Below, one piece after another: positions 1 to 10,710 of a stretch of 13,465 nt of DNA (positions are counted from its first letter, which is position 1; each line of letters begins with the position of its first letter). Origin of the DNA: Nocardioides sp. (GTDB lineage Bacteria; Actinomycetota; Actinomycetes; Propionibacteriales; Nocardioidaceae); contig JARICB010000244.1 in assembly GCA_029264225.1 (NCBI GenBank), forward strand, positions 1 through 13,465, given 5' to 3'. The notes beneath the pieces are model-generated. The model was not told where the DNA came from. It saw nothing but the letters and a program-made list of their open reading frames with translations, and ran no database searches. The position numbers and the translations under genes are program-made.

Positions 1-463
1 CACGACGGTCTCGGATCGCGCTGTGCAGACGGCCCCTGACCTTGGCCTGGCTGGCCGGAAGCGCCGGCGGCAGGCCGAGGCCGCCCACCGCGCTGGCCGT
101 GCGCACGGCTCGGGTGATCGCGCCGAACGAGCGCCGTGCGCCGCTCACACCGCGCTCGGCGCCCACCTCGAAGATGTGGGTCAGTGCGGTGTCGAGGTCC
201 CAACCGTCCCGTTCGGGCAGGTCGAGCTGACCGGTCACGTAGGCCTGCGCAGCACCGAGCTCGCCCGGATGCCACAGAAGACGACGTAGCGCCTCGGGGG
301 ATCTGAGCACGACCACCGGTGCATCCTCGGGGCCGGCGACCGAGCCGTCCCATACCTGCAGCCGGACCGGGAGATCACCGCCGATGAAGGGTCGGGCCGC
401 CTCAGCCAGCCGGTGCGCTAGCCCGGCTGGGGTGATGGGGGACTCCTTGGCGGTGGCAGCCAT
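1..463 (-). CDS. Cyclopropane-fatty-acyl-phospholipid synthase-family methyltransferase, second copy, N-terminal part only
   Basis: Partial gene: 154 codons are visible from an ATG at 463-461, and the rest lies beyond the left edge. The visible part reads like the N-terminal lipid-binding region of CFA synthases: 'PVRLQVWDGS' near residue 32 (compare 'i.v..pdG' in the family), then 'VVVLRSPEALRRLLWHP' and 'GELGAAQAYVTGQLDL', the usual motif describing an active 'shape' before the SAM domain. The SAM-binding domain is outside the window, so catalytic competence cannot be judged. It starts 3 bases after the stop of the upstream methyltransferase, with AAGGAG (475-480, read on the minus strand) overlapping the end of that gene as its ribosome site, so the two are co-translated. 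By family it would transfer a one-carbon unit from S-adenosylmethionine to unsaturated acyl chains of membrane phospholipids. The M. tuberculosis operon has a DUF1295 protein here instead, as I recall it. The family call is fairly safe; the exact product is unknown. Confidence 0.78.
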   Translation of the reverse strand, partial: MAATAKESPITPAGLAHRLAEAARPFIGGDLPVRLQVWDGSVAGPEDAPVVVLRSPEALRRLLWHPGELGAAQAYVTGQLDLPERDGWDLDTALTHIFEVGAERGVSGARRSFGAITRAVRTASAVGGLGLPPALPASQAKVRGRLHSAIRDRR

Positions 464-466
464 CGA

Positions 467-1822
467 CTACTGCTCCTTGGCGAAGGTCAGCTGTTGCACG
501 TTGATGTAGCCGCTGGCGAAACCGGCCCGGGAGTAGGCCAGGTAGAAGTGCCACATGCGCATGAAGAGGTCGTCGAAGCCGAGCGCGACCACCCGTTCGT
601 GGCTGGCCAGGAACGCCTCGTCCCATCGCCGCAACGTCTCCGCGTAGTGGCTGCCGAACTCCAGTCGCCCGACCCTGCGCAGCCGGGTATGTGTCGAGGT
701 GACGTCGTCGATGACCTCCACGCTGGGTAGGAAGCCGCCCGGGAAGACGTATTTGTTGATCCACGTCTGAGTGCCTCGGGTGGCGAGCATCCGGTCGTGG
801 GGCATCGTGATCGCCTGGATCGCTACCCGCCCCCCGGGTGCCAGCACATGGTCGATCGTTTCGAAGTAGGTCGCCCAGAACTCATGGCCGACTGCCTCGA
901 TCATCTCGACGCTGAGCACGGCGTCGTACGCCGCCGCGTAGACCGGCTCGCCCAGCGCCCGGTAGTCCTTCAGCTCGATCTGGACCTGGTCGCTCAAGCC
1001 GGCATCGGCCACCCGCTGTTCGGCCAGCTCGAGCTGCTCCACGGAGAGCGTGACCGAGTGCACTCGGGCGCCGCGGCGGGCTGCCCGCATGGCGAGCTCG
1101 CCCCAGCCGGTGCCGATCTCCAGCACCCGGCTGCCGTCGGTGACCCCGGCCTGGTCGAGGAGGCGCTCGATCTTGCGGCCCTGGGCGGCAGCGAAGTCGG
1201 GGCCGTGGCCGCGCTCACTGTCGTTGTCGGTGGGGTCTGGTGGAGTGGCAATCAGGTGCGGACCGAGGCCACCCGCGTCCTGGGACGCGGCAGCGAGGGA
1301 GGTGTCGAAGAGGGCCGCGGAATAGCTGAGGGTCTCGTCGAGGAACAGTGCGAAGAGGTCGTTGGACAGGTCGTAGTGGTGGGCAATGTTGGCCTGGCTG
1401 TTGGCCGCGGTGCTCCGCTGGTGGCGGGGAGTGCGGTGGGTGACGAAGGCCCGCGCGCGCTGCAACGACTCGGGGACCAAGGTAGCGATCCGGGCCGCGG
1501 GCACGGTCAGGAAGCCGGCCAGGTCGTCGGCATCCCAGGCGCCGGTGAGGTAGGCCTCACCGAAGCCGATCAGACCGTCGCGACCGATGCGGGCGTAGAA
1601 CTCATCGGGGCGGTGGATGCTCATGCGTGGTCCACCACGGCCCAGGATGCGGCCGACTCCGCGGTGGTCGGGGGACTCCTCGACGGTGACGTCGAGGCGA
1701 CGGATCGCAGCGGCGAACAGTCGACGCGCGACGGCGGCCGACACGACGGTTCGGGCCCCGGAGGGCACCTCTTCGAGGGAGGGCAGCCGGCTCACGCCGG
1801 GGCGAGATTCGAGACTGGTCAT
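467..1822 (-). CDS. Cyclopropane-fatty-acyl-phospholipid synthase-family SAM methyltransferase (UfaA1-like position)
   Basis: 451 residues. ATG at 1822 overlaps the stop of the upstream gene (ATGA, 1819-1822). The open frame continues upstream, but that part only shadows DUF1365. N-terminal region 20-145; 'ANIAHHYDLSNDLF' 144-157 is the family signature; SAM motif I 'VLEIGTGWGEL' 233-243; 'SVEMIEAVG' 304-312 carries the conserved Glu309; C-terminal 'MWHFYLAYSRAGF' 423-435. The family moves a one-carbon unit from SAM onto double bonds of membrane acyl chains. Two oddities: the usual 'YSCAxF' Cys (bicarbonate-site Cys139 of E. coli Cfa) is Ala169, and the His of 'LHTIG' is Gln336 in 'IQAITM'. 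There is also an extra stretch of about 30 residues (175-209, Pro/Asp rich) between 'YSAALF' and 'AQGRKIERLL'. In M. tuberculosis the gene at this operon position is ufaA1, reported to make tuberculostearic (10-methyl) acid, so simple methylation is as likely as cyclopropanation. Cytoplasmic, acting at the membrane face. Confidence 0.88.
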   Translation of the reverse strand: MTSLESRPGVSRLPSLEEVPSGARTVVSAAVARRLFAAAIRRLDVTVEESPDHRGVGRILGRGGPRMSIHRPDEFYARIGRDGLIGFGEAYLTGAWDADDLAGFLTVPAARIATLVPESLQRARAFVTHRTPRHQRSTAANSQANIAHHYDLSNDLFALFLDETLSYSAALFDTSLAAASQDAGGLGPHLIATPPDPTDNDSERGHGPDFAAAQGRKIERLLDQAGVTDGSRVLEIGTGWGELAMRAARRGARVHSVTLSVEQLELAEQRVADAGLSDQVQIELKDYRALGEPVYAAAYDAVLSVEMIEAVGHEFWATYFETIDHVLAPGGRVAIQAITMPHDRMLATRGTQTWINKYVFPGGFLPSVEVIDDVTSTHTRLRRVGRLEFGSHYAETLRRWDEAFLASHERVVALGFDDLFMRMWHFYLAYSRAGFASGYINVQQLTFAKEQ

Positions 1823-3822
1823 CGGACACCGTCCTGGTGGTGGGGAGGTCGAGGAAGGATGGGGAGTCGGCGCGCCCAGAGCCAGATGCCGTGGGCGCGA
1901 ATGAGGGCGCTTCCGCGCAGGGCGGAGCCGAGGCTGCGCCAGCCGGAGGAGTGCGTCCGGTGCCCGGAGACGCTGGCACTGAAGGGCGAGCCGTCCTCGG
2001 TGTGCAGGGTGACAGCCACCTGCAGTCGATCGGTCGGTATCGCTACGACGATCTCGTAGTGCCCGTCGACGCCGTGGAAGGGGGAGACATACATCGACTT
2101 CTCGGCCCGGGCCCGGCCTTGGGCGTCGGGGTGGACGAGATAGGCGTGCCGGTCGCCGTAGGTGTTGTGCACCTCGACCACTACTGCGGCCTGGTTGCCA
2201 TCGGCCGCGAAGCACCAGAAGACCGAGATCGGATTGAAGCAGTAGCCCAGGGAGCGAGGATTCGCGGCCATCAGGATCCGACCGCCGGTGAGGTCGATGT
2301 CGTTCTCGGCCAGGAAGGCGTCGAGGTTCGCCCGGATGGAGGCAGCGGGGGAGCCGAGGTGGTCGCGCGACTCGAAGCGGGCCAGCACCCCGCGCTGGGG
2401 CAGATCGTCGAGGTCCACCAGCCACAGGTGTGAACGGTTCTCGAAGGAGCGCTTGAACGGCGTACGCCGGGTGTGGCGAATGGTGGTCTCGAAGAGGCCC
2501 GGCTCGACCAGGCGGGCCGCGGACTCCGGTGCGGCGGGCCAGGTCAGACCGAGGTGGGTGGCAGCACCCAGCCCCGAACGCGCGCCGTCCTCGTGGAAGC
2601 CCCACCCGTGATAAGCGCCGGCAAAGGCCACTCGGTCGCTGTTGATCGAAGGCAGCCGACGTTGCGCAGCCACCGACGCGGGGGTGTAGAGCGGGTGCTC
2701 GTAGTCCATCCGGTCGATCACTGAGGCCGGATCGATCAGGTGCTCGCCACCGAGGGTGACCAGGTAGTGGGTCTGGGTCGGCAGCCGCTGCAACCGAGTC
2801 AGGTCGTAGGTCACGGTGACGTCTCCGGTCGCAGTGGCGGGCCGCCGGAAGTTCCAGCTGGATCGGGCACCGGTAGCGCGGGGCAGGAGCGAGGTGTCGG
2901 TGTGCAGGAGGGCGGTGTTCGCGGTGTAGGGGAGGGCGCCGAGCACCTCACGCTGCGCACGGCTCGGTGACTCCAGCATGCTCAGCGCCTGTGCCGGGTG
3001 GGTCGCGATCACGACCGCGTCGAAGGCGTGGACTGCCCCGTTGCCGTCGGTGACCTCGACGGAGTCGGGGAGCTCGCGGATCGAGGTGACCTTGGTGTTC
3101 GTCCGGACCGACTGCAGCGCGGCAGCCACAGCAGCGACGTAGGTGCCCGAGCCGCCCGTGACCGTGCGCCATTGGGGTGAGCCAAAGATAGCGAGCATCC
3201 CGTGGTGCTCCAGGAAGGTGAACAGGTAGCGCGCCGGGTATTCCAGCGACGTCTCGGGGTCGCACGACCAGACGGCGGCGACGAGCGGCTCCACGAAGTG
3301 TCGGATGAAATGGGCGTCGAAGTCGCCGGCCCGAAGAAATTCGCGCAGCGTCTGGTCGACGGGTGCTGCCTCGGTGGGGGGTGACTCGGGTGCTGCCAGC
3401 AGGGCCCGGGCCTGGCGGTGGAAGCGAGGGATCGCGGCCAACATGCGCCAGTGGTCGGCAGACCTGATCGAGGCCCTGGTCGCGAACAACCCCTTGGCAC
3501 CCAGCGCTCCGGCGTACTCGACTCCGGTGCTCTGATCGGAGACCGACAAGGACATTTCGGAGGGCTGGGTGGCGATGTCGAGCTCCGCGAAGAGTCGCAA
3601 CAGAGTCGGGTAGGTGCGCCGGTTGTGCACGATGAAGCCGGTGTCGATGCGCAACTCACCACCGGGCGCGGGCACGACATGGGTATCGGCATGCCCGCCG
3701 AGGCGGTCGTCGGCTTCGAACAGGGTGACGTGGGCCGTGCGGGACGCGACGTAGGCGGCGGTAAGGCCTGCTACCCCCGACCCGACGACTCCCACGCGAC
3801 GCGCGGGGGTCGCCATGGTCAC
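1819..3822 (-). CDS. Fused FAD-dependent amine-oxidase-like oxidoreductase (COG2907) and DUF1365 protein
   Basis: 667 residues, one uninterrupted frame. Residues 9-435 form an FAD oxidoreductase: dinucleotide fold G14-x-G16-x-x-G19 followed by 'LFEADDRLGGHADT' 34-47, and a C-terminal FAD segment 'AFAGAYHGWGFHEDG' 399-413. Residues 440-667 are a full DUF1365 domain, starting at 'LFETTIRHTRRTPFKRSF', where stand-alone DUF1365 proteins begin. It has the family's 'NPRSLGYCFNPISVFWCF' 521-538, 'EVHNTYGDRHAYLV' 550-563 and 'KSMYVSPFHGVDG' 575-587. In M. tuberculosis and many proteobacteria these are two adjacent genes next to a CFA-type methyltransferase. The reaction is not established to my knowledge; oxidation or desaturation of unsaturated acyl chains as a partner of the methyltransferase is an inference. 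The GTG at 3822 overlaps the rskA stop (GTGA); ATG at 3816 is an alternative 2 codons inside, and an AAGG lies upstream of both. The next gene starts within its stop codon. Confidence 0.9.
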   Translation of the reverse strand: MTMATPARRVGVVGSGVAGLTAAYVASRTAHVTLFEADDRLGGHADTHVVPAPGGELRIDTGFIVHNRRTYPTLLRLFAELDIATQPSEMSLSVSDQSTGVEYAGALGAKGLFATRASIRSADHWRMLAAIPRFHRQARALLAAPESPPTEAAPVDQTLREFLRAGDFDAHFIRHFVEPLVAAVWSCDPETSLEYPARYLFTFLEHHGMLAIFGSPQWRTVTGGSGTYVAAVAAALQSVRTNTKVTSIRELPDSVEVTDGNGAVHAFDAVVIATHPAQALSMLESPSRAQREVLGALPYTANTALLHTDTSLLPRATGARSSWNFRRPATATGDVTVTYDLTRLQRLPTQTHYLVTLGGEHLIDPASVIDRMDYEHPLYTPASVAAQRRLPSINSDRVAFAGAYHGWGFHEDGARSGLGAATHLGLTWPAAPESAARLVEPGLFETTIRHTRRTPFKRSFENRSHLWLVDLDDLPQRGVLARFESRDHLGSPAASIRANLDAFLAENDIDLTGGRILMAANPRSLGYCFNPISVFWCFAADGNQAAVVVEVHNTYGDRHAYLVHPDAQGRARAEKSMYVSPFHGVDGHYEIVVAIPTDRLQVAVTLHTEDGSPFSASVSGHRTHSSGWRSLGSALRGSALIRAHGIWLWARRLPILPRPPHHQDGVR

Positions 3823-4523
3823 GTCGCCTTGGAGAAGTCGAAGAGGGCGATCGGCTCGGTGGTGGGCTCCGGTGAGCCACCCTCGGGTTCGACGGTGATC
3901 CCTGCCGCGGTCGCGGCAGCGGCGTCGCCGTCCAGGACCAACTGATTGTCCTCACCCGGCGGCATCAGCCCTGCGGGAATCATTGCGCCCTCGTCGTTCT
4001 GGAGCCAGATCGCGAACACCTTGCCCGAGGGTGCCGGAGCCATGTCCTTTGTGGTGATGACGGCCAGCCCCATCGACTCCGAGCGGGTCACAGTCGCACT
4101 ACCGGCTGCGCCGAGATCGACGGCCACCGATTCGGCGTCCTGCGAGCTCAGCACCTGCTCGGCCGCGGTCAGCGAACCCTGTCCGGTGGGCGTCCAGGGC
4201 TGCCAGATTGCGGCACTGATGCCGAGAACGGCCAACAGTGAGGCGGCCACCAGCAGTGGCAGCCAGCGTCGTCGGGGGGTGGTGGTGGGTCGGACGGGTG
4301 GGATCGGTCGGACTTGGGAGATGCCGGCCAGTACGGCGGCGCGCAGCGCAGGAGGTGGAGTCACCGCGGTGGTCTCGGAAAGGAGGGCGGCCGTTTCCTG
4401 CAGGCTCGCGGTCTCGGTCCGACAGTCGCCGCACTCGCTCAGGTGTCGTTCGAACTGGGCACGCTCGAACTCGTCGACGGCATCCAGGGCGTAGGCGCCC
4501 GAGAGCTTGTGAATGTCGTTCAT
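3819..4523 (-). CDS. rskA: Anti-sigma-K factor RskA, membrane-anchored with zinc-binding anti-sigma domain
   Basis: 234 residues. Cytoplasmic anti-sigma domain 1-50 has H27-x3-C31-x2-C34 and an upstream H5, the four-ligand pattern of zinc-binding anti-sigma (ZAS) domains. One transmembrane helix lies at about 87-107, after 'PRRR', giving a cytoplasm-in orientation. Residues 115-234 are the extracytoplasmic RskA domain; 'AEQVLSSQDAESVAVDLG' (121-138), 'GKVFAIWLQ' (167-175) and 'ITVEPEGGSPEPT' (209-221) follow the M. tuberculosis RskA sequence closely as I remember it. It holds SigK inactive at the membrane. In M. tuberculosis release involves regulated intramembrane proteolysis (site-2 protease Rip1), and no protease gene is present here. 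The ATG overlaps the sigK stop (ATGA, 4520-4523), so sigma and anti-sigma are translationally coupled. The sigma/anti-sigma pairing is very secure; the signal sensed is unknown. Confidence 0.93.
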   Translation of the reverse strand: MNDIHKLSGAYALDAVDEFERAQFERHLSECGDCRTETASLQETAALLSETTAVTPPPALRAAVLAGISQVRPIPPVRPTTTPRRRWLPLLVAASLLAVLGISAAIWQPWTPTGQGSLTAAEQVLSSQDAESVAVDLGAAGSATVTRSESMGLAVITTKDMAPAPSGKVFAIWLQNDEGAMIPAGLMPPGEDNQLVLDGDAAAATAAGITVEPEGGSPEPTTEPIALFDFSKAT

Positions 4524-5134
4524 GACGCAACTCCCAACGCATCGCGCAACCGGATCAAGCCGTCCCGGATGCGGGTCTTGGCAGTGCCGATGGGCACCTC
4601 GAGCATCGTTGCCACCTCTGTATGTGTGTAGCCGCCCAGGAATGCCAGTTCAACGGCTTCGCGCTGGACGTTGGTCAAGGCTGCGACCGCACCCCGAACT
4701 CGCTGGGCATCCAGCGAAGTGTGGGCCGCCTCGACCGTGGTGTCGCGTTCGGTCGGCTGGCTCTCGCGGTGGTAGACCTCGTCGCGTGCGCTGGCGGCCT
4801 CCGCGGATCGAACCCGGTCGACGGCCTTGCGGTGCACGATGGTCAGCAACCAGCCCATGAGACTGCCACGGGCGGGGTCGAAGCGGGTGCTGGTGCGCCA
4901 CGCGTCGAGGTAGGCCTCTTGGACGACCTCTTCGGCATGGGCGGGGTTGCGGACCACTCGCAGCGCGAGGCCGTAGGCACGGGCCGATGTGGCGTCGTAC
5001 AACTCCGCGAAGGCGCCCTCGTCACCACGACCGGAGCGTTGCATGAGCTCGGCCAGGTGGCTGTTGGGGCCGGCGCCCGCCGGGGTGCCCTCCGCAGAGG
5101 GCTCCCCGGCGGGAACGGACTTGAGATGATCCAC
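4520..5134 (-). CDS. sigK: ECF RNA polymerase sigma factor SigK
   Basis: 204 residues. Sigma-2 region at about 40-110 ('FAELYDATSARAYGLALRV' 42-60; 'AEEVVQEAYLDAWR' 67-80; 'GWLLTIVHRKAVDRVR' 94-109) and sigma-4 at about 143-197 with the helix-turn-helix 'YTHTEVATMLEVPIGTAKTR' 169-188. The linker and both domains follow M. tuberculosis SigK, and the partner gene is an evident RskA. It has an extra Gly/Pro-rich N-terminus of about 25 residues. It contains no cysteine, so the disulfide reported to make M. tuberculosis SigK redox-sensitive cannot form here. Start is GTG at 5134, with AAAGGA 9 bases upstream. It begins 35 bases after the fasciclin stop, with no promoter visible between them, so it is probably transcribed with the fasciclin gene from the SigK-type promoter at 5911-5940, making expression autoregulated. 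Confidence 0.93.
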   Translation of the reverse strand: MDHLKSVPAGEPSAEGTPAGAGPNSHLAELMQRSGRGDEGAFAELYDATSARAYGLALRVVRNPAHAEEVVQEAYLDAWRTSTRFDPARGSLMGWLLTIVHRKAVDRVRSAEAASARDEVYHRESQPTERDTTVEAAHTSLDAQRVRGAVAALTNVQREAVELAFLGGYTHTEVATMLEVPIGTAKTRIRDGLIRLRDALGVAS

Positions 5135-5169
5135 GACACTGAGTCCTTTGCTGGTCTAGTAGCCAACAA

Positions 5170-5853
5170 TCACATGGTGGGCATCATGACGGTGTCAATA
5201 ACGTAGACCGTTGCGTTGGCCGTGGGGATGTTGCCGCAGATGATCTTGGCCTGCTCCTCGGTGTCGGCGGTGAAGGTCTCGTCCGAACCCTCGACCGTGA
5301 GCTCGTCCTTGTTGAGCGTCTCGAACGTGCCGGCCAGGTTGTCCGGGCTCAGCTGCTCGCCCACGACGTGGTGGGTCAGGATGGCGGTCAGCATCTCCTT
5401 GTCGGCGAGGACTGCCTTCAGCGTCTTCGGCGGGAGCTTGGCGAACGCGTCGTTGGTGGGCGCGAACACGGTGATGCCCTCGGAGGAGTTGAGGGTGTCG
5501 ACCAGGCCAGCCTTCGTGACGGCCGTGACGAGAGTCGTGAGCAGCGGGTTGGCGGACGCGGCGGTGGCGACCGGATCGGTGGCCATGCCGTTGAAGGAGC
5601 CGGCACCGTCGGCCGGGACGGCAGCGCAGCCCTCACCGAAGGTCTCGGCACCGGCGTCGGAGGCCATGTCGGACGAGTCGTCGGTCATACCGTCGTCGTC
5701 GGTCATCGCGTCGTCGGAGGGGGTGTCGCTGGCCGACGGGGTGGAGCTGCTGTCGCTGGCGCTGGTGTCGTCATCGCTGCCACAGGCAGCCAAACCGAAG
5801 GACATGGTCAGGGCGAGAGCAGCGAGACCGGAGTTGCGAGCAATGCGGTTCAT
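5170..5853 (-). CDS. Fasciclin (FAS1) domain surface lipoprotein, MPT83/MPT70-like
   Basis: 227 residues. Signal peptide with n-region 'MNRIAR', hydrophobic 9-20 and lipobox L21-A-A-C24, so it should be lipidated and held on the outer face of the membrane. Residues 25-70 are a Ser/Asp/Thr-rich linker with Met at 46-spaced acidic positions (M50, M56, M63). The FAS1 domain is about 95-226: 'GITVFAPTNDAFAKLP' 126-141 (H1), 'LTHHVV' 159-164, 'TANATVYVIDTVMMP' 211-225 (H2). 'GCAAVP' with Cys76 and 'IICGNIPTANATVYVIDTV' with Cys206 match positions of the disulfide in MPT70/MPT83. Those proteins are SigK-controlled secreted antigens in the M. tuberculosis complex; FAS1 domains serve in adhesion or ligand binding. 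Ribosome site AAAGG lies 8 bases before the ATG. A SigK-like promoter lies about 60 bases upstream, and sigK follows after 35 bases. The ligand is unknown. Confidence 0.93.
   Translation of the reverse strand: MNRIARNSGLAALALTMSFGLAACGSDDDTSASDSSSTPSASDTPSDDAMTDDDGMTDDSSDMASDAGAETFGEGCAAVPADGAGSFNGMATDPVATAASANPLLTTLVTAVTKAGLVDTLNSSEGITVFAPTNDAFAKLPPKTLKAVLADKEMLTAILTHHVVGEQLSPDNLAGTFETLNKDELTVEGSDETFTADTEEQAKIICGNIPTANATVYVIDTVMMPTM
5677..5706 (-). repeat. Tandem 18-base repeat in the lipoprotein linker
   Basis: The 12-mer GTCGTCGGTCAT (plus strand) occurs at 5677-5688 and again exactly at 5695-5706, 18 bases apart. It encodes the repeated Met-Thr-Asp-Asp unit of the acidic lipoprotein linker. 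A GTC trinucleotide run lies between the copies. Unit length is a multiple of three, so slippage would alter linker length without breaking the frame. Confidence 0.6.
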
Positions 5854-5910
5854 GAGAGGTGCCTTTCGTCAGGGGCTCCGCAGCGTTTGCCACTGGGAGG
5901 CTTTCCATGG

Positions 5911-5940
5911 GGTGTTCGCTGCACCAGGCCAGTCGGATTG
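5911..5940 (-). promoter_or_regulatory. Candidate SigK promoter of the fasciclin-sigK operon
   Basis: On the minus strand, -35-like CAATCC (5940-5935), a 16-base spacer, then CGAA (5918-5915) followed by CACC. The reported M. tuberculosis SigK consensus, as I recall it, is CCATCC and CCGAAT, so the -35 matches 5 of 6 and the -10 core CGAA is intact. The same arrangement with the same spacing occurs at 7476-7501. The expected transcript start near 5907 leaves a leader of roughly 50 bases containing the AAAGG ribosome site. Confidence 0.68.
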
Positions 5941-5958
5941 GTGAAGTTGAAAAGAGAA

Positions 5959-7467
5959 TCAGCCAACGTTGACGGCGATCTCCTGGATGCCGCTCGAGCC
6001 TTCGGGGAAGGGCGTCATCCGGGCGGCCGTCTGCACGTCGCCGTCCTTGTTCGTGGCGCGGCTGGCCACGAAATGCTGGCCCGGCTCGGCGTCCCACTCG
6101 AGATACCACTGACGCCAGTAGTCGTTGCCCGCGTCGGCGCCCAGGGTGGCGGGCTGCCAAGGACCGCCGTCGATGCGCACCTCCACCCCTTCGATGCCCA
6201 CTCCCTGGGCCCAGGCGACGCCACCGATGAACGTGCGGCCGGGGTCGTTGTCGGAGAGTGGCTTGGGGGTATCGATCCGGCTGGAGATCTTGATCGGCGC
6301 CTCGGTGGCCCAGTCGCGGTCGGTCCAGTAGGACGATTCCTGGTCATAGGTCGTCAGCGTCATCTTGGTGATCCACTTGCAGGCACTGACGAAGCCGTAG
6401 AGGCCGGGCACCACCATCCGCACCGGAAAGCCGTTCTCGCGCGGCAGGGGTTCGCCGTTCATCCCGAAGACGATCATCGAGTCGCGCCCGTCCGTGGCCA
6501 CGCTCAGCGGCGTGGAGATGGTCATCCCGTCGACGTCGGTCGAGATGATCTGGTCAGCGCCGGTCCGGGAGATGCCGGCCAGGGCGAGCACGTCGCTGAG
6601 GCGTACGCCGAGCCAGCGGGCGGCACCGACGTAGGGCCCGCCAACATCGTTGGAGACACAGGTCAAGGTGATGTCGCGCTCGATCACCTCGAGCTCATAG
6701 AGGTCGGCCAGCGTCAGGGTGACCTCCTTGTCGACGTCACCGTCGATGGTCAAGGTCCACGAGTCGGCGTCCACGATCGGCAACGAGAGTCGGGTGTCGA
6801 CCCGGTAGAAGTCGGCTGTCGGCGTGCGGAACGGCGAGATGCCGTCGATCTTCTGCTCGAGTCCGACGGGCAGCGGCGTCGTCTTCGTCGCGACGCTCGG
6901 CAGGTCGATGTCGGTGCCCTTGAGTCGGTAGGAAGCCACCCAGCGCCCAGCGCTACCGAAGGCGGCGGCGGCCACGGCCAGTCCGCCGGCCGCCAGCAGC
7001 ACGCCGCGACGGCTGGGACCCGAGGAGGCGGATTCCTCACCGGACCTCTCCAGTCGGAGCAGGCCGGCGAGAGCCACGACACCGACCGCGGCCGCGACCA
7101 GGCTCGGGAGCAGGTCAAGAGGACCGGCCGCAGGCCGGAGCAGGGCCAGGACGCCGGCCAGGACGGCGAGGGCAGCGATCATCAGCAGGCCGGGGAGGAG
7201 CCAGCGCGCCGCGATCACCCCCGCAATCCCGGCAAGTACCAGCACCCCGAGCATGACCGACCCGATCAGGATCGCCTTGTCGGCCGACCCGAACGTGCGG
7301 ATCGCCCATTCCTTGAGGGGGGTGGGCGTCAGGTCGATCACCGTCGAGCCCACGGCAAGTACGGGGGAAGCGGCCGGAACCGTCAGGGCCGCCACCAGGT
7401 GGGCGACCGCGACGCCCGTGAGCGCTGCGAGGACGCCGTACAGGGCATGGAGGAGTCGAGTCGTCAT
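5959..7467 (-). CDS. Membrane-anchored molybdopterin-dependent oxidoreductase, sulfite-oxidase fold
   Basis: 502 residues. The N-terminal 175 residues are membrane: four hydrophobic segments (about 8-30, 64-87, 89-111, 120-138) then a fifth at 155-173 preceded by 'SRRGVLL' (152-158), which looks like a twin-arginine signal placed internally. The catalytic sulfite-oxidase/MsrP-type domain spans about 225-395 with 'ITLTCVSNDVGG' 266-277, Cys270 being the expected molybdenum ligand, and 'ENGFPVRMVVPGLYG' 344-358. Residues about 400-500 are the Ig-like dimerisation domain ('GVAWAQGVGIEGVEVRIDGG', 'WRQWYLEWDAEPG'). It should face the cell exterior. Substrate unknown: the family oxidises sulfite or reduces methionine sulfoxide and other S/N-oxides. 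No haem domain is seen, so electrons must come from a partner or from the membrane part. A SigK-like promoter abuts the ATG, no ribosome site is present, and the mRNA is probably leaderless. The fasciclin gene follows 105 bases downstream. Confidence 0.9.
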   Translation of the reverse strand: MTTRLLHALYGVLAALTGVAVAHLVAALTVPAASPVLAVGSTVIDLTPTPLKEWAIRTFGSADKAILIGSVMLGVLVLAGIAGVIAARWLLPGLLMIAALAVLAGVLALLRPAAGPLDLLPSLVAAAVGVVALAGLLRLERSGEESASSGPSRRGVLLAAGGLAVAAAAFGSAGRWVASYRLKGTDIDLPSVATKTTPLPVGLEQKIDGISPFRTPTADFYRVDTRLSLPIVDADSWTLTIDGDVDKEVTLTLADLYELEVIERDITLTCVSNDVGGPYVGAARWLGVRLSDVLALAGISRTGADQIISTDVDGMTISTPLSVATDGRDSMIVFGMNGEPLPRENGFPVRMVVPGLYGFVSACKWITKMTLTTYDQESSYWTDRDWATEAPIKISSRIDTPKPLSDNDPGRTFIGGVAWAQGVGIEGVEVRIDGGPWQPATLGADAGNDYWRQWYLEWDAEPGQHFVASRATNKDGDVQTAARMTPFPEGSSGIQEIAVNVG

Positions 7468-7475
7468 GTGGTGTC

Positions 7476-7501
7476 TTCGTCACGGAGTGGCCAGCGGATT
7501 G
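7476..7501 (-). promoter_or_regulatory. Candidate SigK promoter of the molybdoenzyme gene (leaderless)
   Basis: On the minus strand, CAATCC (7501-7496), a 16-base spacer, CGAA (7479-7476), then GACACC. This is the same -35, spacing and -10 core as at 5911-5940. Only 8 bases (GACACCAC) separate CGAA from the ATG at 7467. A start point 6-7 bases after the -10 would fall on or next to the ATG, so the mRNA would begin at the start codon. No Shine-Dalgarno sequence fits in the gap. Confidence 0.68.
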
Positions 7502-8508: not shown

Positions 8509-10710
8509 GTGCACAGGGAGCCGGAATTGTCTGAACAGCTCGAGCAGCGGGAGATCGCCACCGAGCAGGAGTACGTCGACCGCGTCTACGTGCAACTCGA
8601 AGCCAGCGCCCGCAACGCCCAGCATCTCGCCCGCGAGGGTCACGCCCGGGGCAAGCTCGGCCACGAAGGCGGGCTCGTCGAGCGGGACGCGATGGTCTTC
8701 CAGGCGGCCAAGCGGATCGCCCAGCTCGACGCGGCCCACGAGGGGCTCGTCTTCGGGCGTCTCGACCTCACCCCTGATATCGACGTCGTGCCCCGCTACA
8801 TCGGCCGGATCGGACTGCGCGACGCCGATCGCGACACGCTGCTCATCGACTGGCGGGCACCCGCCGCCGCAGTGTTCTACCAAGCCACCGCCGCCGAGCC
8901 GCAAGGCGTGATCCGGCGCCGCGTGCTGCGCGCCGAACACCGCAGCGTGGTGGGCGTCGAGGACGAACTGCTCGACGCCGAGGCACACGACGAGGCCACC
9001 TTGCCGATCATCGGCGAGGGGGCCCTGATGGCCCAGCTGTCCCGGGCCCGCGACCGGAGCATGCACTCGATCGTGGCCACCATCCAGGCCGAGCAGGACA
9101 AGGCGATCCGAGCGCCGGGCAAGGGTGTCGTGACCATCTCGGGCGGACCCGGCACCGGCAAGACCGTGGTGGCACTGCACCGGGCCGCCTTCCTGCTCTA
9201 CTCCGACCGTCGGCGCTACGAATCCGGCGGCGTGCTGGTGGTTGGTCCGAGTGGCGTCTTCATGCGCTACATCGAGCGGGTCCTGCCCAGCCTCGGCGAG
9301 ACCGCCGTAGCCCTGCGCTCGCTGGGTGAGGTCGTCGATGGTGTCCGTGCTACCCGCCACGATGAACCGGCCGTTGCCGACATCAAGGGTGCGGCCGCGA
9401 TGGCCGAGCTGGTACGACGCACGGCGCGACAGCAGGCACCCCAAGCCCCCGACTCGTTCTCCTACTTCTGGCGCGACGACCGGCTCACCCTGGACCGGGG
9501 CACCCTCGGCAAGGTACGCCGCCAGCTGATGTCCCAGGGCCGGCGCAACCGTCAGTTGCCACGCGTGGCCAATGCGTTGCTGGATGCCATGTGGCGTCAG
9601 GTGCGCGGTGAGCGCGGACGCGAACGCGGTCGCGAGTACTTCAACGCCGAGGTGCTCGGTGACCAACGCTTTGTCGACTTCGCCACCGCTTGGTGGCCGC
9701 CGTTGGATGCGCCGACCGTGCTGGCCTGGCTGCGGGAGCCGGAGTTCTTGGCCCGGGTGGCCGAAGGCATCCTCTCGACCGAGCAGCAGCGGCTCCTCAC
9801 CGCGTCGTGGACCCGCTCCGACCTCTCGGTCGCGGACGTGCCGCTGCTCGACGAACTGCGCTACGCGCTGGGCGACGTACCCCTGCGCAGCGATGCCGAC
9901 CACGACCGCGACGACACGCTGACCGTGCTCGAGGGTGGCGTCGACCTTCAGGAGCTCACCACGGCGGCGGAGCGCGAATACGCTCCGACCGGGCGGGCCT
10001 GGGCGCCGCCCACCCACCGGATCGAGGACGACCACTTCGCCCACGTACTGATCGACGAGGCTCAGGACCTGACGCCCATGCAGTGGCGGATGGTGGGTCG
10101 GCGCGGCCGTACGGCGAGCTGGACCATCGTCGGCGACCCGGCGCAGTCATCGTGGCCGGTCCCCGACGAGGCGGCAGCGGCCCGCGCCGAAGCGCTGGAT
10201 GGCAAGTCGATCCACGAGTTCCACCTCTCGACCAACTACCGCAACTCGGCCGAGATCTACGAATACGCCGCCGCCTACGCAAAGCGGGTGGGTCTGGACG
10301 CCGACCTGCCCGACGCCGTACGCCGCACCGGCAAGTCGCCGGTCGCGATCGAGGCGCCCGACCTCGAAGCCGGAGTCCGCGAAGCCGTGCTCGACGTGGC
10401 CGCCCAGGTCGGCGGCACTGTCGCGATCGTGGTGCCGGCCGCCCGTCGCTCGGAGGTCAACGCCTGGCTGGCGTCGTGGCCCGAGCTCGCCGACGATGCG
10501 CGTGGGGCACGAGCCGATGGTGACGCCTCGTTGGCCTCGAGTGGCGAGGACCGGGTCGTCGTGCTGACCGGCCTCGACACCAAGGGTCTCGAGTTCGATG
10601 CCATCGTGGTCGTCAGTCCCCAGGAGATCGAGGACGAGTCGGCCACCGGCCGCGCCACGCTCTACGTCGTACTCACCCGGGCCACCCAACTGTTGACCAC
10701 CGTCTCCTGA
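8509..10710 (+). CDS. helD: HelD-type UvrD/Rep-family ATPase, RNA polymerase recycling factor
   Basis: 733 residues, the length of class II (actinobacterial) HelD. N-terminal helical region 'EQEYVDRVYVQLEAS' (about 19-33), then 'YIGRIGLRDADRDTLLIDWRAPAAAVFY', a signature of HelD proteins. Walker A 'GPGTGKT' 213-219 with 'VVALHRAAFLLY'; Walker B 'VLIDEAQDLTPMQW' with DEAQ 516-519; 'GDPAQSSW'; 'STNYRNSAEIYEYA'; 'GLDTKGLEFDAIVV' 688-701; and motif VI 'LYVVLTRATQLLT' near the C-terminus. HelD binds stalled RNA polymerase and uses ATP to release it from nucleic acid; a Streptomyces relative (HelR) protects polymerase from rifamycins. I see no obvious short rifamycin-associated element upstream. 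Start choice: GTG at 8509 (GGAG 4 bases before) or TTG at 8527 (AGGGAG 6 bases before); the latter has the better ribosome site. A DNA-helicase role is a less likely alternative. Confidence 0.88.
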   Translation: MHREPELSEQLEQREIATEQEYVDRVYVQLEASARNAQHLAREGHARGKLGHEGGLVERDAMVFQAAKRIAQLDAAHEGLVFGRLDLTPDIDVVPRYIGRIGLRDADRDTLLIDWRAPAAAVFYQATAAEPQGVIRRRVLRAEHRSVVGVEDELLDAEAHDEATLPIIGEGALMAQLSRARDRSMHSIVATIQAEQDKAIRAPGKGVVTISGGPGTGKTVVALHRAAFLLYSDRRRYESGGVLVVGPSGVFMRYIERVLPSLGETAVALRSLGEVVDGVRATRHDEPAVADIKGAAAMAELVRRTARQQAPQAPDSFSYFWRDDRLTLDRGTLGKVRRQLMSQGRRNRQLPRVANALLDAMWRQVRGERGRERGREYFNAEVLGDQRFVDFATAWWPPLDAPTVLAWLREPEFLARVAEGILSTEQQRLLTASWTRSDLSVADVPLLDELRYALGDVPLRSDADHDRDDTLTVLEGGVDLQELTTAAEREYAPTGRAWAPPTHRIEDDHFAHVLIDEAQDLTPMQWRMVGRRGRTASWTIVGDPAQSSWPVPDEAAAARAEALDGKSIHEFHLSTNYRNSAEIYEYAAAYAKRVGLDADLPDAVRRTGKSPVAIEAPDLEAGVREAVLDVAAQVGGTVAIVVPAARRSEVNAWLASWPELADDARGARADGDASLASSGEDRVVVLTGLDTKGLEFDAIVVVSPQEIEDESATGRATLYVVLTRATQLLTTVS

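What the first reader, a model, noticed from the sequence alone, without database searches (positions are those of the whole stretch)
1..7467. A whole SigK-type regulon gathered at one locus, with a molybdoenzyme added
The sigK-rskA pair is flanked on one side by an MPT83/MPT70-like lipoprotein and on the other by the FAD oxidoreductase, DUF1365 and CFA-type methyltransferase set. As established for M. tuberculosis, these parts sit at two separate SigK-controlled loci. Here they are one co-directional block of seven genes with 4-bp overlaps, plus a membrane sulfite-oxidase-fold enzyme at the head. This suggests an ancestral module in which one envelope signal controls a surface FAS1 lipoprotein, extracytoplasmic redox chemistry and modification of unsaturated membrane lipids. 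The joint function is not described to my knowledge.
Basis: partly seen in the sequence, partly recalled or inferred. Interest (0 to 1): 0.75.

Follow-up and report, generated by a model that had tools for sequence, protein, structure and literature searches.

The report
SigK operon predicted to make furan lipids
In a soil bacterium of the genus Nocardioides, one stress-switched operon joins a surface protein, a molybdenum enzyme and enzymes that look able to turn membrane fats into oxidant-absorbing furan fats, which suggests what the long-puzzling SigK stress system may be for.

Summary
On the minus strand of a Nocardioides MAG contig lie seven co-directional ORFs: membrane molybdo-oxidoreductase, MPT70-like FAS1 lipoprotein, SigK, RskA, a FAD oxidoreductase fused to DUF1365, and two CFA-type methyltransferases, the last cut by the contig end. 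The arrangement is conserved: molybdoenzyme, FAS1, SigK and RskA are together in 30 of 32 genus-mate loci, the lipid genes too in 19. A SigK-type promoter, CMATCC-N16/17-CGAA, precedes many of these units: 138 of 164 matches lie just upstream of the module's genes, against 0-2 for altered motifs. The lipid genes carry their own copy only when detached from rskA (41 of 80; 0 of 72 directly behind it).

FAD protein, DUF1365 and CFA methyltransferase correspond to UfaD, UfaO and UfaM, shown in Rhodobacter to make furan fatty acids that scavenge singlet oxygen; there, they and a fasciclin belong to an ECF/anti-sigma regulon. Best reading: SigK-controlled photo-oxidative or lipid-oxidation defence of the membrane. 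SigK control is well supported by sequence; chemistry and signal are inferred. The FAS1-sigK-rskA cassette is already known. New variant of a known kind.

The parts
7476..7501 (-). SigK-type promoter CAATCC-N16-CGAA in front of the molybdoenzyme, ending 8 nt before its ATG (leaderless layout)
   Evidence: same motif before the molybdoenzyme in 37 of 58 loci
5959..7467 (-). membrane-anchored molybdopterin oxidoreductase of the sulfite-oxidase fold (PF00174), 502 aa; three N-terminal hydrophobic segments, then a twin-arginine-like SRRG segment and a fourth hydrophobic stretch; Cys270 aligns to the cysteine of solved sulfite oxidases
   Evidence: Tat-like motif and Mo-ligand role of the cysteine recalled
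5915..5940 (-). SigK-type promoter CAATCC-N16-CGAA in front of the FAS1 gene
   Evidence: before FAS1 in 46 of 60 loci
5170..5853 (-). FAS1 (fasciclin) lipoprotein, 227 aa, lipobox-like LAAC at about residue 24; best PDB match MPT70
   Evidence: lipobox pattern recalled
4520..5134 (-). SigK-family ECF sigma factor, 204 aa, no cysteine
   Evidence: (NF007228 241.5 bits, cut-off 226)
3819..4523 (-). RskA-type anti-sigma factor, 234 aa: N-terminal zf-HC2 with HxxxCxxC, one TM segment (88-106), RskA_C beyond it
1819..3822 (-). fused UfaD-like FAD amine-oxidase-fold oxidoreductase (residues 1-425) and UfaO-like DUF1365 domain (443-660)
467..1822 (-). CFA-type SAM methyltransferase MT1 (UfaM candidate), 451 aa
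1..463 (-). second CFA-type methyltransferase MT2, N-terminal 154 aa only, cut by the contig end; no Pfam match by itself, but the full relative in L115 (427 aa) has a CMAS domain

Best explanation
The block is one SigK-RskA stress operon of Nocardioides that defends the outer face and lipids of the membrane against photo-oxidative (singlet-oxygen type) or lipid-oxidation damage. An envelope signal leads to release of SigK from the zinc-type, membrane-spanning anti-sigma RskA; SigK then transcribes molybdoenzyme, FAS1, itself, RskA and the lipid genes from CMATCC-N16/17-CGAA promoters (shown at sequence level only). MT1 methylates unsaturated phospholipid acyl chains, the UfaD domain adds a second double bond, the UfaO domain inserts O2-derived oxygen to close a methyl-furan ring, and MT2 may add a second methyl (inferred from the characterised Rhodobacter and Rhodopseudomonas enzymes). 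The furan fatty acids scavenge the oxidant. The exported molybdoenzyme and the FAS1 lipoprotein act outside, the first probably on oxidised groups of envelope molecules, the second by binding a lipid or pigment (both guesses). Possible feed-forward: as UfaD/UfaO are needed for full activation of RpoE in R. sphaeroides, the lipid product may itself help to trigger RskA release.
For: SigK control: 138 of 164 motif matches in 1.82 Mb lie within 200 bp upstream of these genes; eight altered motifs gave 2-18 matches with 0-2 upstream. Detached UfaD has its own motif in 41 of 80 loci, UfaD directly behind RskA in 0 of 72; SigK has it in 25 of 34 when it heads its unit, 1 of 82 behind FAS1, 0 of 17 behind Ufa genes (Fisher p 6e-15 and 2e-18; rows are related, so p is only indicative). 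14 of 31 UfaD loci with no sigK in the stretch still have the motif. Pathway: UfaD, UfaO and a CMAS enzyme are together in 60 of 72 DUF1365 loci; collinear FAD-DUF1365 pairs in Paracoccus (then MFS and SDR genes, much as told for RSP_1091-1087), Aminobacter (divergent from a ChrR/sigma pair) and Salinivibrio (with MerR, phrB, CFA) match the fused protein at 35-37% over about 90%; 22 DUF1365 columns are invariant over the window and 12 relatives, two of them proteobacterial. Function of relatives: PMC7380195. Parallel regulon: the R. sphaeroides RpoE regulon under singlet oxygen holds RSP_1087-1091, cfaS, phrA and fasciclin RSP_1409, and full RpoE activation needs RSP_1090/91; R. capsulatus RpoE/ChrR is more like SigK/RskA than like R. 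sphaeroides RpoE/ChrR (PMC7074977, passages). Light induces the mpt83/mpt70 homologues of M. kansasii (PMC9861118, passages). UV lowers RskA in a soil actinobacterium (PMC8965627, passages). An alpha/beta hydrolase elsewhere in this genome has the same promoter (motif kept in 12 of 29 hits) and is related (33-41%) to hydrolases beside UfaD or DUF1295 in Rhodococcus and Streptomyces plasmids.
Against: No expression, lipid or light data exist here for this organism. Photolyase, a core member in Rhodobacter, has the motif in 0 of 30 loci of genus and order, and only 3 of 13 photolyases lying near these loci have it, all in family f64; glutathione peroxidase has it in only 2 of 30. 33 of 72 DUF1365 loci have no SigK-RskA within 8 kb, and UfaD lacks the motif in 0 of 4 f60 and 0 of 3 f61 loci and in the single loci of f55, f65, f77, f79 and f83, so the lipid pathway is often under other control. 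Detached UfaD lacks the motif in 39 of 80. UfaD/UfaO resemble the proteobacterial proteins by only 24-40% per domain, and the R. sphaeroides proteins themselves could not be compared. The M. kansasii dipZ gene was not light-regulated. The molybdoenzyme has no counterpart in the Rhodobacter list. One actinobacterium (Agrococcus) reported to make a methyl-free furan fatty acid had no enzyme like UfaO found (PMC9323897, passages), so furan lipids need not come from this pathway.
Confidence: 0.6

Rival explanations
1. The lipid set makes a methyl-branched, methylene or cyclopropane fatty acid (for example 10-methyl or 10-methylene stearic acid) rather than a furan; DUF1365 has another role and the operon is a general envelope or membrane-fluidity response.
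For: The methyltransferases are CFA-type; 10-methyl fatty acids are common in Nocardioides and UfaA1 of mycobacteria has been tied to such products (both recalled). Identity to proteobacterial DUF1365 proteins is only about 24-36%.
Against: The 10-methyl pathway uses a different reductase family (recalled), whereas here the usual partners are the amine-oxidase-fold FAD protein and DUF1365, together with a CMAS enzyme in 60 of 72 loci and fused in Nocardioides; the same triad makes furan fatty acids in two alphaproteobacteria (PMC7380195).
Confidence: 0.25
2. The operon answers thiol or disulfide stress, metals or envelope stress rather than light or singlet oxygen; the furan lipid is one of several general antioxidants.
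For: RskA keeps a zinc-type HxxxCxxC site and the operon has an exported molybdoenzyme. The SigK signal is unknown, contact with macrophages being the only inducer named in PMC7509140. [quoted passage not shown] Photolyase is not in the predicted regulon of the genus.
Against: Shared gene content with a singlet-oxygen regulon, light induction of mpt83/mpt70 homologues in M. kansasii, photolyase near 13 of 91 examined loci and a MerR family, whose one tested member has a B12-binding domain, near 6 of 91.
Confidence: 0.3
3. The genes merely sit together by descent within Nocardioides and do not act in one response.
For: Most of the conserved seven-gene order is from one genus; gene order in close relatives is not independent.
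Against: The SigK-type promoter is often found before the lipid genes when they are apart from rskA and never when they are directly behind it, and FAS1, molybdoenzyme and Ufa genes recur near sigK in other families with other orders.
Confidence: 0.06

Closest known systems
mpt83-sigK-rskA cassette and SigK regulon of mycobacteria (Veyrier 2008 as told in PMC7509140)
   Different: All in one operon; molybdoenzyme at the head; UfaD-UfaO fused; second methyltransferase; SigK without the two cysteines; RskA with an HxxxCxxC site that the crystallised Mtb RskA domain lacks
Furan fatty acid pathway UfaM/UfaD/UfaO/FufM of Rhodobacter sphaeroides and Rhodopseudomonas palustris (PMC7380195)
   Same: Same three enzyme classes, clustered; two CFA-type methyltransferases of about 28% mutual identity in relatives, as 26% is reported for FufM and UfaM
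   Different: UfaD and UfaO in one polypeptide; predicted control by SigK-RskA; product not shown
RpoE-ChrR singlet-oxygen regulon of Rhodobacter (PMC7074977)
   Same: ECF sigma with its anti-sigma, UfaDO pair beside the sigma locus, CFA methyltransferase, FAS1 protein in the regulon; ChrR is a zinc-type anti-sigma factor (recalled)
   Different: SigK family; anti-sigma spans the membrane; no SigK-type motif before photolyase in this genus; molybdoenzyme added
Sulfite dehydrogenases SorA/SoxC/SorT and MsrP
   Same: PF00174 fold, conserved cysteine
   Different: Far below every curated cut-off (113 of 600, 107 of 420, 104 of 570, 50 of 207 bits); carries an N-terminal membrane part

Membership tests
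SigK (ECF) | NCBIfam SigK model above its cut-off | tested here: met
   NF007228 241.5 bits, cut-off 226
SigK (ECF) | cysteines at Mtb positions 133 and 183 | tested here: not met
   Ala at both, no Cys at all; absent in 41 of 41 f1 loci. PMC7509140 reports them in 94% of ECF18 and 56% of ECF19, so they do not define the whole group
SigK (ECF) | ECF18 or ECF19 assignment | not tested
   no ECF classifier at hand; the tree only sets cysteine-free apart from cysteine-bearing SigK (support 92/85)
RskA | RskA_C domain above gathering score, one TM, N-terminal anti-sigma domain | tested here: met
   PF10099 79.6 bits (cut-off 29.4), RskA_N 29.6 (27), TM 88-106
mpt83-sigK-rskA cassette | FAS1 lipoprotein gene directly before sigK-rskA with a SigK-type site | tested here: met
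SigK regulon | expression depends on SigK | not testable with these tools
   promoter motif only
Furan fatty acid pathway | UfaD-, UfaO- and UfaM-type proteins encoded together | tested here: met
Furan fatty acid pathway | direct similarity to the characterised RSP_1090/1091/ufaM proteins | tested here: inconclusive
   those sequences were not found here; Paracoccus and Aminobacter operons served as stand-ins
Furan fatty acid pathway | furan fatty acid product | not testable with these tools
   needs GC-MS
RpoE-ChrR singlet-oxygen system | ChrR-type sigma/anti-sigma pair | tested here: not met
   sigma belongs to the SigK model, anti-sigma to RskA_C
RpoE-ChrR singlet-oxygen system | response to singlet oxygen | not testable with these tools
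   needs an experiment
Sulfite dehydrogenase SorA/SoxC/SorT or MsrP | curated score cut-off | tested here: not met

The most novel reading that the evidence does not exclude
SigK-RskA across Actinomycetes is a singlet-oxygen or photo-oxidative lipid-defence switch whose core product is a furan fatty acid, standing beside the ChrR-RpoE system with the same effector set (UfaD-UfaO, CFA methyltransferase, FAS1) but another sigma family; the lipid product feeds back to free the sigma factor. In this view the thiol chemistry has shifted between lineages: zinc-type site on RskA only in Nocardioides, zinc-type site plus SigK cysteines in families f6 and f64, SigK cysteines only in f7.
Probability: 0.35. 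Interest if true: 0.82.

Novelty: new variant of a known kind. Interest (0 to 1): 0.6.

Why it matters
PMC7509140 states that the signal that starts the SigK cascade is unknown. If SigK operons make furan fatty acids, the regulon gains a chemical output that can be measured by GC-MS and a signal (light, singlet oxygen, lipid oxidation) that can be applied in a harmless soil genus. It would also carry the furan fatty acid pathway, worked out in two alphaproteobacteria (PMC7380195; listings also name Halomonas and Arabidopsis), into Actinomycetota. I found no paper linking the two in these library searches: furan fatty acid + Mycobacterium, 8 papers; listing, one of them, PMC7074977, read in passages; Rv0447c, Rv0448c, Rv0449c, none; furan fatty acid, UfaO, UfaD, actinobacteria, 13 papers; listing, two read in part; singlet oxygen + SigK + Actinobacteria, none; for the molybdoenzyme, (ECF sigma factor, fasciclin, molybdopterin, anti-sigma, none). 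The library holds open-licence papers only.

Tried and rejected

Rows left out: of 36 genus-mates, 32 loci were fetched; G004 (match on a 6-kb contig) and G015, G016, G024 (best match 40-46% identical) were not. One search used 91 of the fetched loci.
Full report
WHAT IS THERE. The window is contig C122 of an incomplete MAG (2.9 Mb, 84% complete). The closest named relatives of its fused lipid protein are Nocardioides, N. allogilvus first (80%). The minus strand carries seven co-directional ORFs: a 502-aa membrane molybdo-oxidoreductase (7467-5959); a FAS1 lipoprotein (5853-5170) whose best PDB match is MPT70 (E 4e-34); SigK (5134-4520; SigK model 241.5 bits, cut-off 226); RskA (4523-3819); one 667-aa ORF that fuses an amine-oxidase-fold FAD protein to DUF1365 (3822-1819); a CFA-type methyltransferase (1822-467); and the start of a second one, cut by the contig end (463-1). 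Overlaps of 4 bp occur at three junctions only; molybdoenzyme and FAS1 are 105 bp apart.

CONSERVATION. Of 36 genus-mates searched with the molybdoenzyme, 32 loci were fetched; left out were G004 (6-kb contig) and G015, G016 and G024, whose best match is only 40-46% identical. 30 of the 32 have FAS1, SigK and RskA within 9 kb of the molybdoenzyme, and 19 of 32 also have UfaD, UfaO and MT1. In 246 genomes of the class, 72 (own included) have DUF1365, with 73 matches; the 72 matches other than the window's own were all fetched. UfaD lies near in 63, UfaD plus a CMAS enzyme in 60, SigK plus RskA within 8 kb in 39, FAS1 in 19, the molybdoenzyme in 14, and SigK plus FAS1 plus molybdoenzyme in 14: f1 8 of 8, f1c 1 of 1, f6 3 of 12, f64 2 of 7. 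In the eleven other family labels without a count no DUF1365 locus reaches the SigK-plus-RskA thresholds; one f61 locus has a weaker pair (L088). Some stretches end at contig ends, so absences are upper bounds.

PROMOTERS. The motif C[AC]ATCC-N16/17-CGAA was read from the window's two sites, 7501-7476 and 5940-5915. In 1.82 Mb of fetched loci it has 164 matches, 138 of them within 200 bp upstream of, and on the strand of, the module's genes: molybdoenzyme 37 of 58 loci, FAS1 46 of 60, UfaD 32 of 82, SigK 15 of 79, UfaO 6 of 90, MT1 1, RskA 1. Eight permuted or re-spaced motifs have 2-18 matches with 0-2 upstream. The pattern follows transcription units: UfaD directly behind RskA never has its own motif (0 of 72), detached UfaD has it in 41 of 80; SigK behind FAS1 1 of 82, behind a Ufa gene 0 of 17, at the head of its unit 25 of 34 (Fisher tests, rows not independent). 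Three Nocardioides loci with UfaD away from rskA (L058, L324, L331) all have it. UfaD loci without any sigK in the stretch keep it in 14 of 31. Misses: FAS1 of f6 0 of 7 and of f3 0 of 3, UfaD of f60 0 of 4 and of f61 0 of 3. That the motif is the SigK site rests on this self-consistency and on the published statement that SigK sites are conserved in Actinobacteria (PMC7509140, passages); the paper's text gave no sequence to compare.

WHAT THE LIPID GENES ARE. PMC7380195 (outline, sections 8-10 and passages) shows that UfaM (CFA-type methyltransferase), UfaD (FAD protein) and UfaO (DUF1365) convert phospholipid 18:1 chains to a methyl-furan fatty acid using O2, that FufM, a methylase with 26% identity to UfaM, adds a second methyl, and that the furan acid disappears under singlet oxygen, which kills cells unable to make it. 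The window has the same three classes, with UfaD and UfaO fused (27 of 27 f1 loci), and a second methyltransferase about 28% like the first in relatives. 22 DUF1365 columns are invariant over the window and 12 relatives, two of them proteobacterial. In public plasmid records the fused protein aligns end to end with adjacent FAD and DUF1365 genes: in Paracoccus followed by MFS and SDR genes, much as the RSP_1091-1087 order told in PMC7074977; in Aminobacter divergent from a ChrR/sigma pair; in Salinivibrio behind MerR and phrB; in Tsukamurella before an annotated sigK and anti-sigma gene. Not every plasmid copy has a sigma gene near: none in the Rhodococcus and Streptomyces NBC_00158 stretches shown.

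THE PARALLEL. PMC7074977 (passages) lists for the R. sphaeroides RpoE regulon under singlet oxygen, among others, rpoE, chrR, cfaS, phrA, RSP_1087-1091, the fasciclin RSP_1409 and folE2; says that full activation of RpoE needs RSP_1090/91 and CfaS; that RSP_1090/91 lie immediately upstream of rpoE-chrR in many Rhodobacteraceae; and that R. capsulatus RpoE and ChrR are more like M. tuberculosis SigK and RskA (34% and 25%) than like those of R. sphaeroides (24% and 13%). Light raises the mpt83 and mpt70 homologues in M. kansasii, though not dipZ (PMC9861118, passages). UV lowers RskA abundance in Nesterenkonia-type strain Act20 (PMC8965627, passages; genus name recalled). In Vibrio cholerae a CFA synthase rises under blue light in a study of ChrR and MerR (PMC5241685, passages). 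So four classes - ECF sigma with its anti-sigma, UfaD-UfaO, CFA methyltransferase, FAS1 - are shared between regulons of different sigma families.

REGULON BEYOND THE WINDOW. The own genome has 11 motif matches (1 in the reversed control). One stands 8 nt before an alpha/beta hydrolase (C247:3999-4643). The motif lies within about 35 nt of the start in 12 of 29 hits in relatives, 8-9 nt before it in 9 of these; the 12 are among the 15 hits of 48% identity or more, and two are copies in one genome. The hydrolase is related to those next to UfaD in Rhodococcus erythropolis (33%) and next to DUF1295 in a Streptomyces plasmid (41%), so it is tied to the lipid set by place in some genomes and by promoter in others. 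Results against a light regulon: photolyase 0 of 30 and glutathione peroxidase 2 of 30. Photolyase lies near 13 of 91 examined loci, with the motif in 3 of the 13, all f64; a MerR family (one tested member has a B12-binding domain) near 6 of 91, motif 0 of 6.

SIGMA AND ANTI-SIGMA. The window SigK has no cysteine; the positions of Mtb Cys133 and Cys183 are Ala. Over 135 distinct pairs: no SigK cysteine with HxxxCxxC on RskA 90, neither 1, both 27, SigK cysteines only 17 (all 14 f7 pairs and 3 named ones). The tree separates the cysteine-bearing from the cysteine-free SigKs (92/85), root unsure. PMC7509140 ties loss of the cysteines to abnormal RskA; in Nocardioides the RskA is full length. Family labels f1, f6 and so on are unnamed in the tool; f1 is Nocardioides and f7 holds Rhodococcoides kyotonense by matching contig lengths.

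MECHANISM AND CONFIDENCE. Shown by sequence: gene content, order, conservation, promoter pattern. Inferred, with my odds: SigK control about 0.9, furan fatty acid chemistry about 0.65, photo-oxidative or lipid-oxidation signal about 0.45, feed-forward by the lipid about 0.25. The substrate of the molybdoenzyme and the ligand of FAS1 are open.

Noticed in passing
window 4520-5134 and 3819-4523; 135 SigK-RskA pairs: Redox-active residues differ by lineage: HxxxCxxC on RskA only (Nocardioides and kin), on RskA plus two SigK cysteines (f6, f64), or SigK cysteines only (f7).
   Followed up: partly
G000:C247:3999-4643 (L198, L262): Alpha/beta hydrolase with a SigK-type promoter 8 nt before its start codon, kept in 12 of 29 hits, related to hydrolases beside UfaD or DUF1295 elsewhere.
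   Followed up: partly
window 1-463: Second CFA-type methyltransferase, a candidate for the second furan methylation (FufM role); cut by the contig end.
   Followed up: partly
window 8509-10707: HelR/HelD-like RNA polymerase recycling helicase relative (371 bits to NF041258, below its cut-off 1100).
   Followed up: no
L059 600-1961: A DNA photolyase gene lies 55 bp before the molybdoenzyme-FAS1-SigK-RskA genes in genome G006, without a SigK-type promoter.
   Followed up: partly
L103-L105, L107, L111, L119-L121: Eight f7 loci keep only UfaO (DUF1365) before sigK-rskA, without UfaD or MT1 in the stretch; in 6 f7 loci the motif stands before UfaO. What a lone UfaO does is unclear.
   Followed up: no
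[not shown]
   Followed up: partly
L377 (Klebsiella pneumoniae plasmid), L296 (Salinivibrio): The UfaD-UfaO-CFA set also occurs on gammaproteobacterial plasmids with MerR, SDR, DUF2878 and DUF3833 genes.
   Followed up: no
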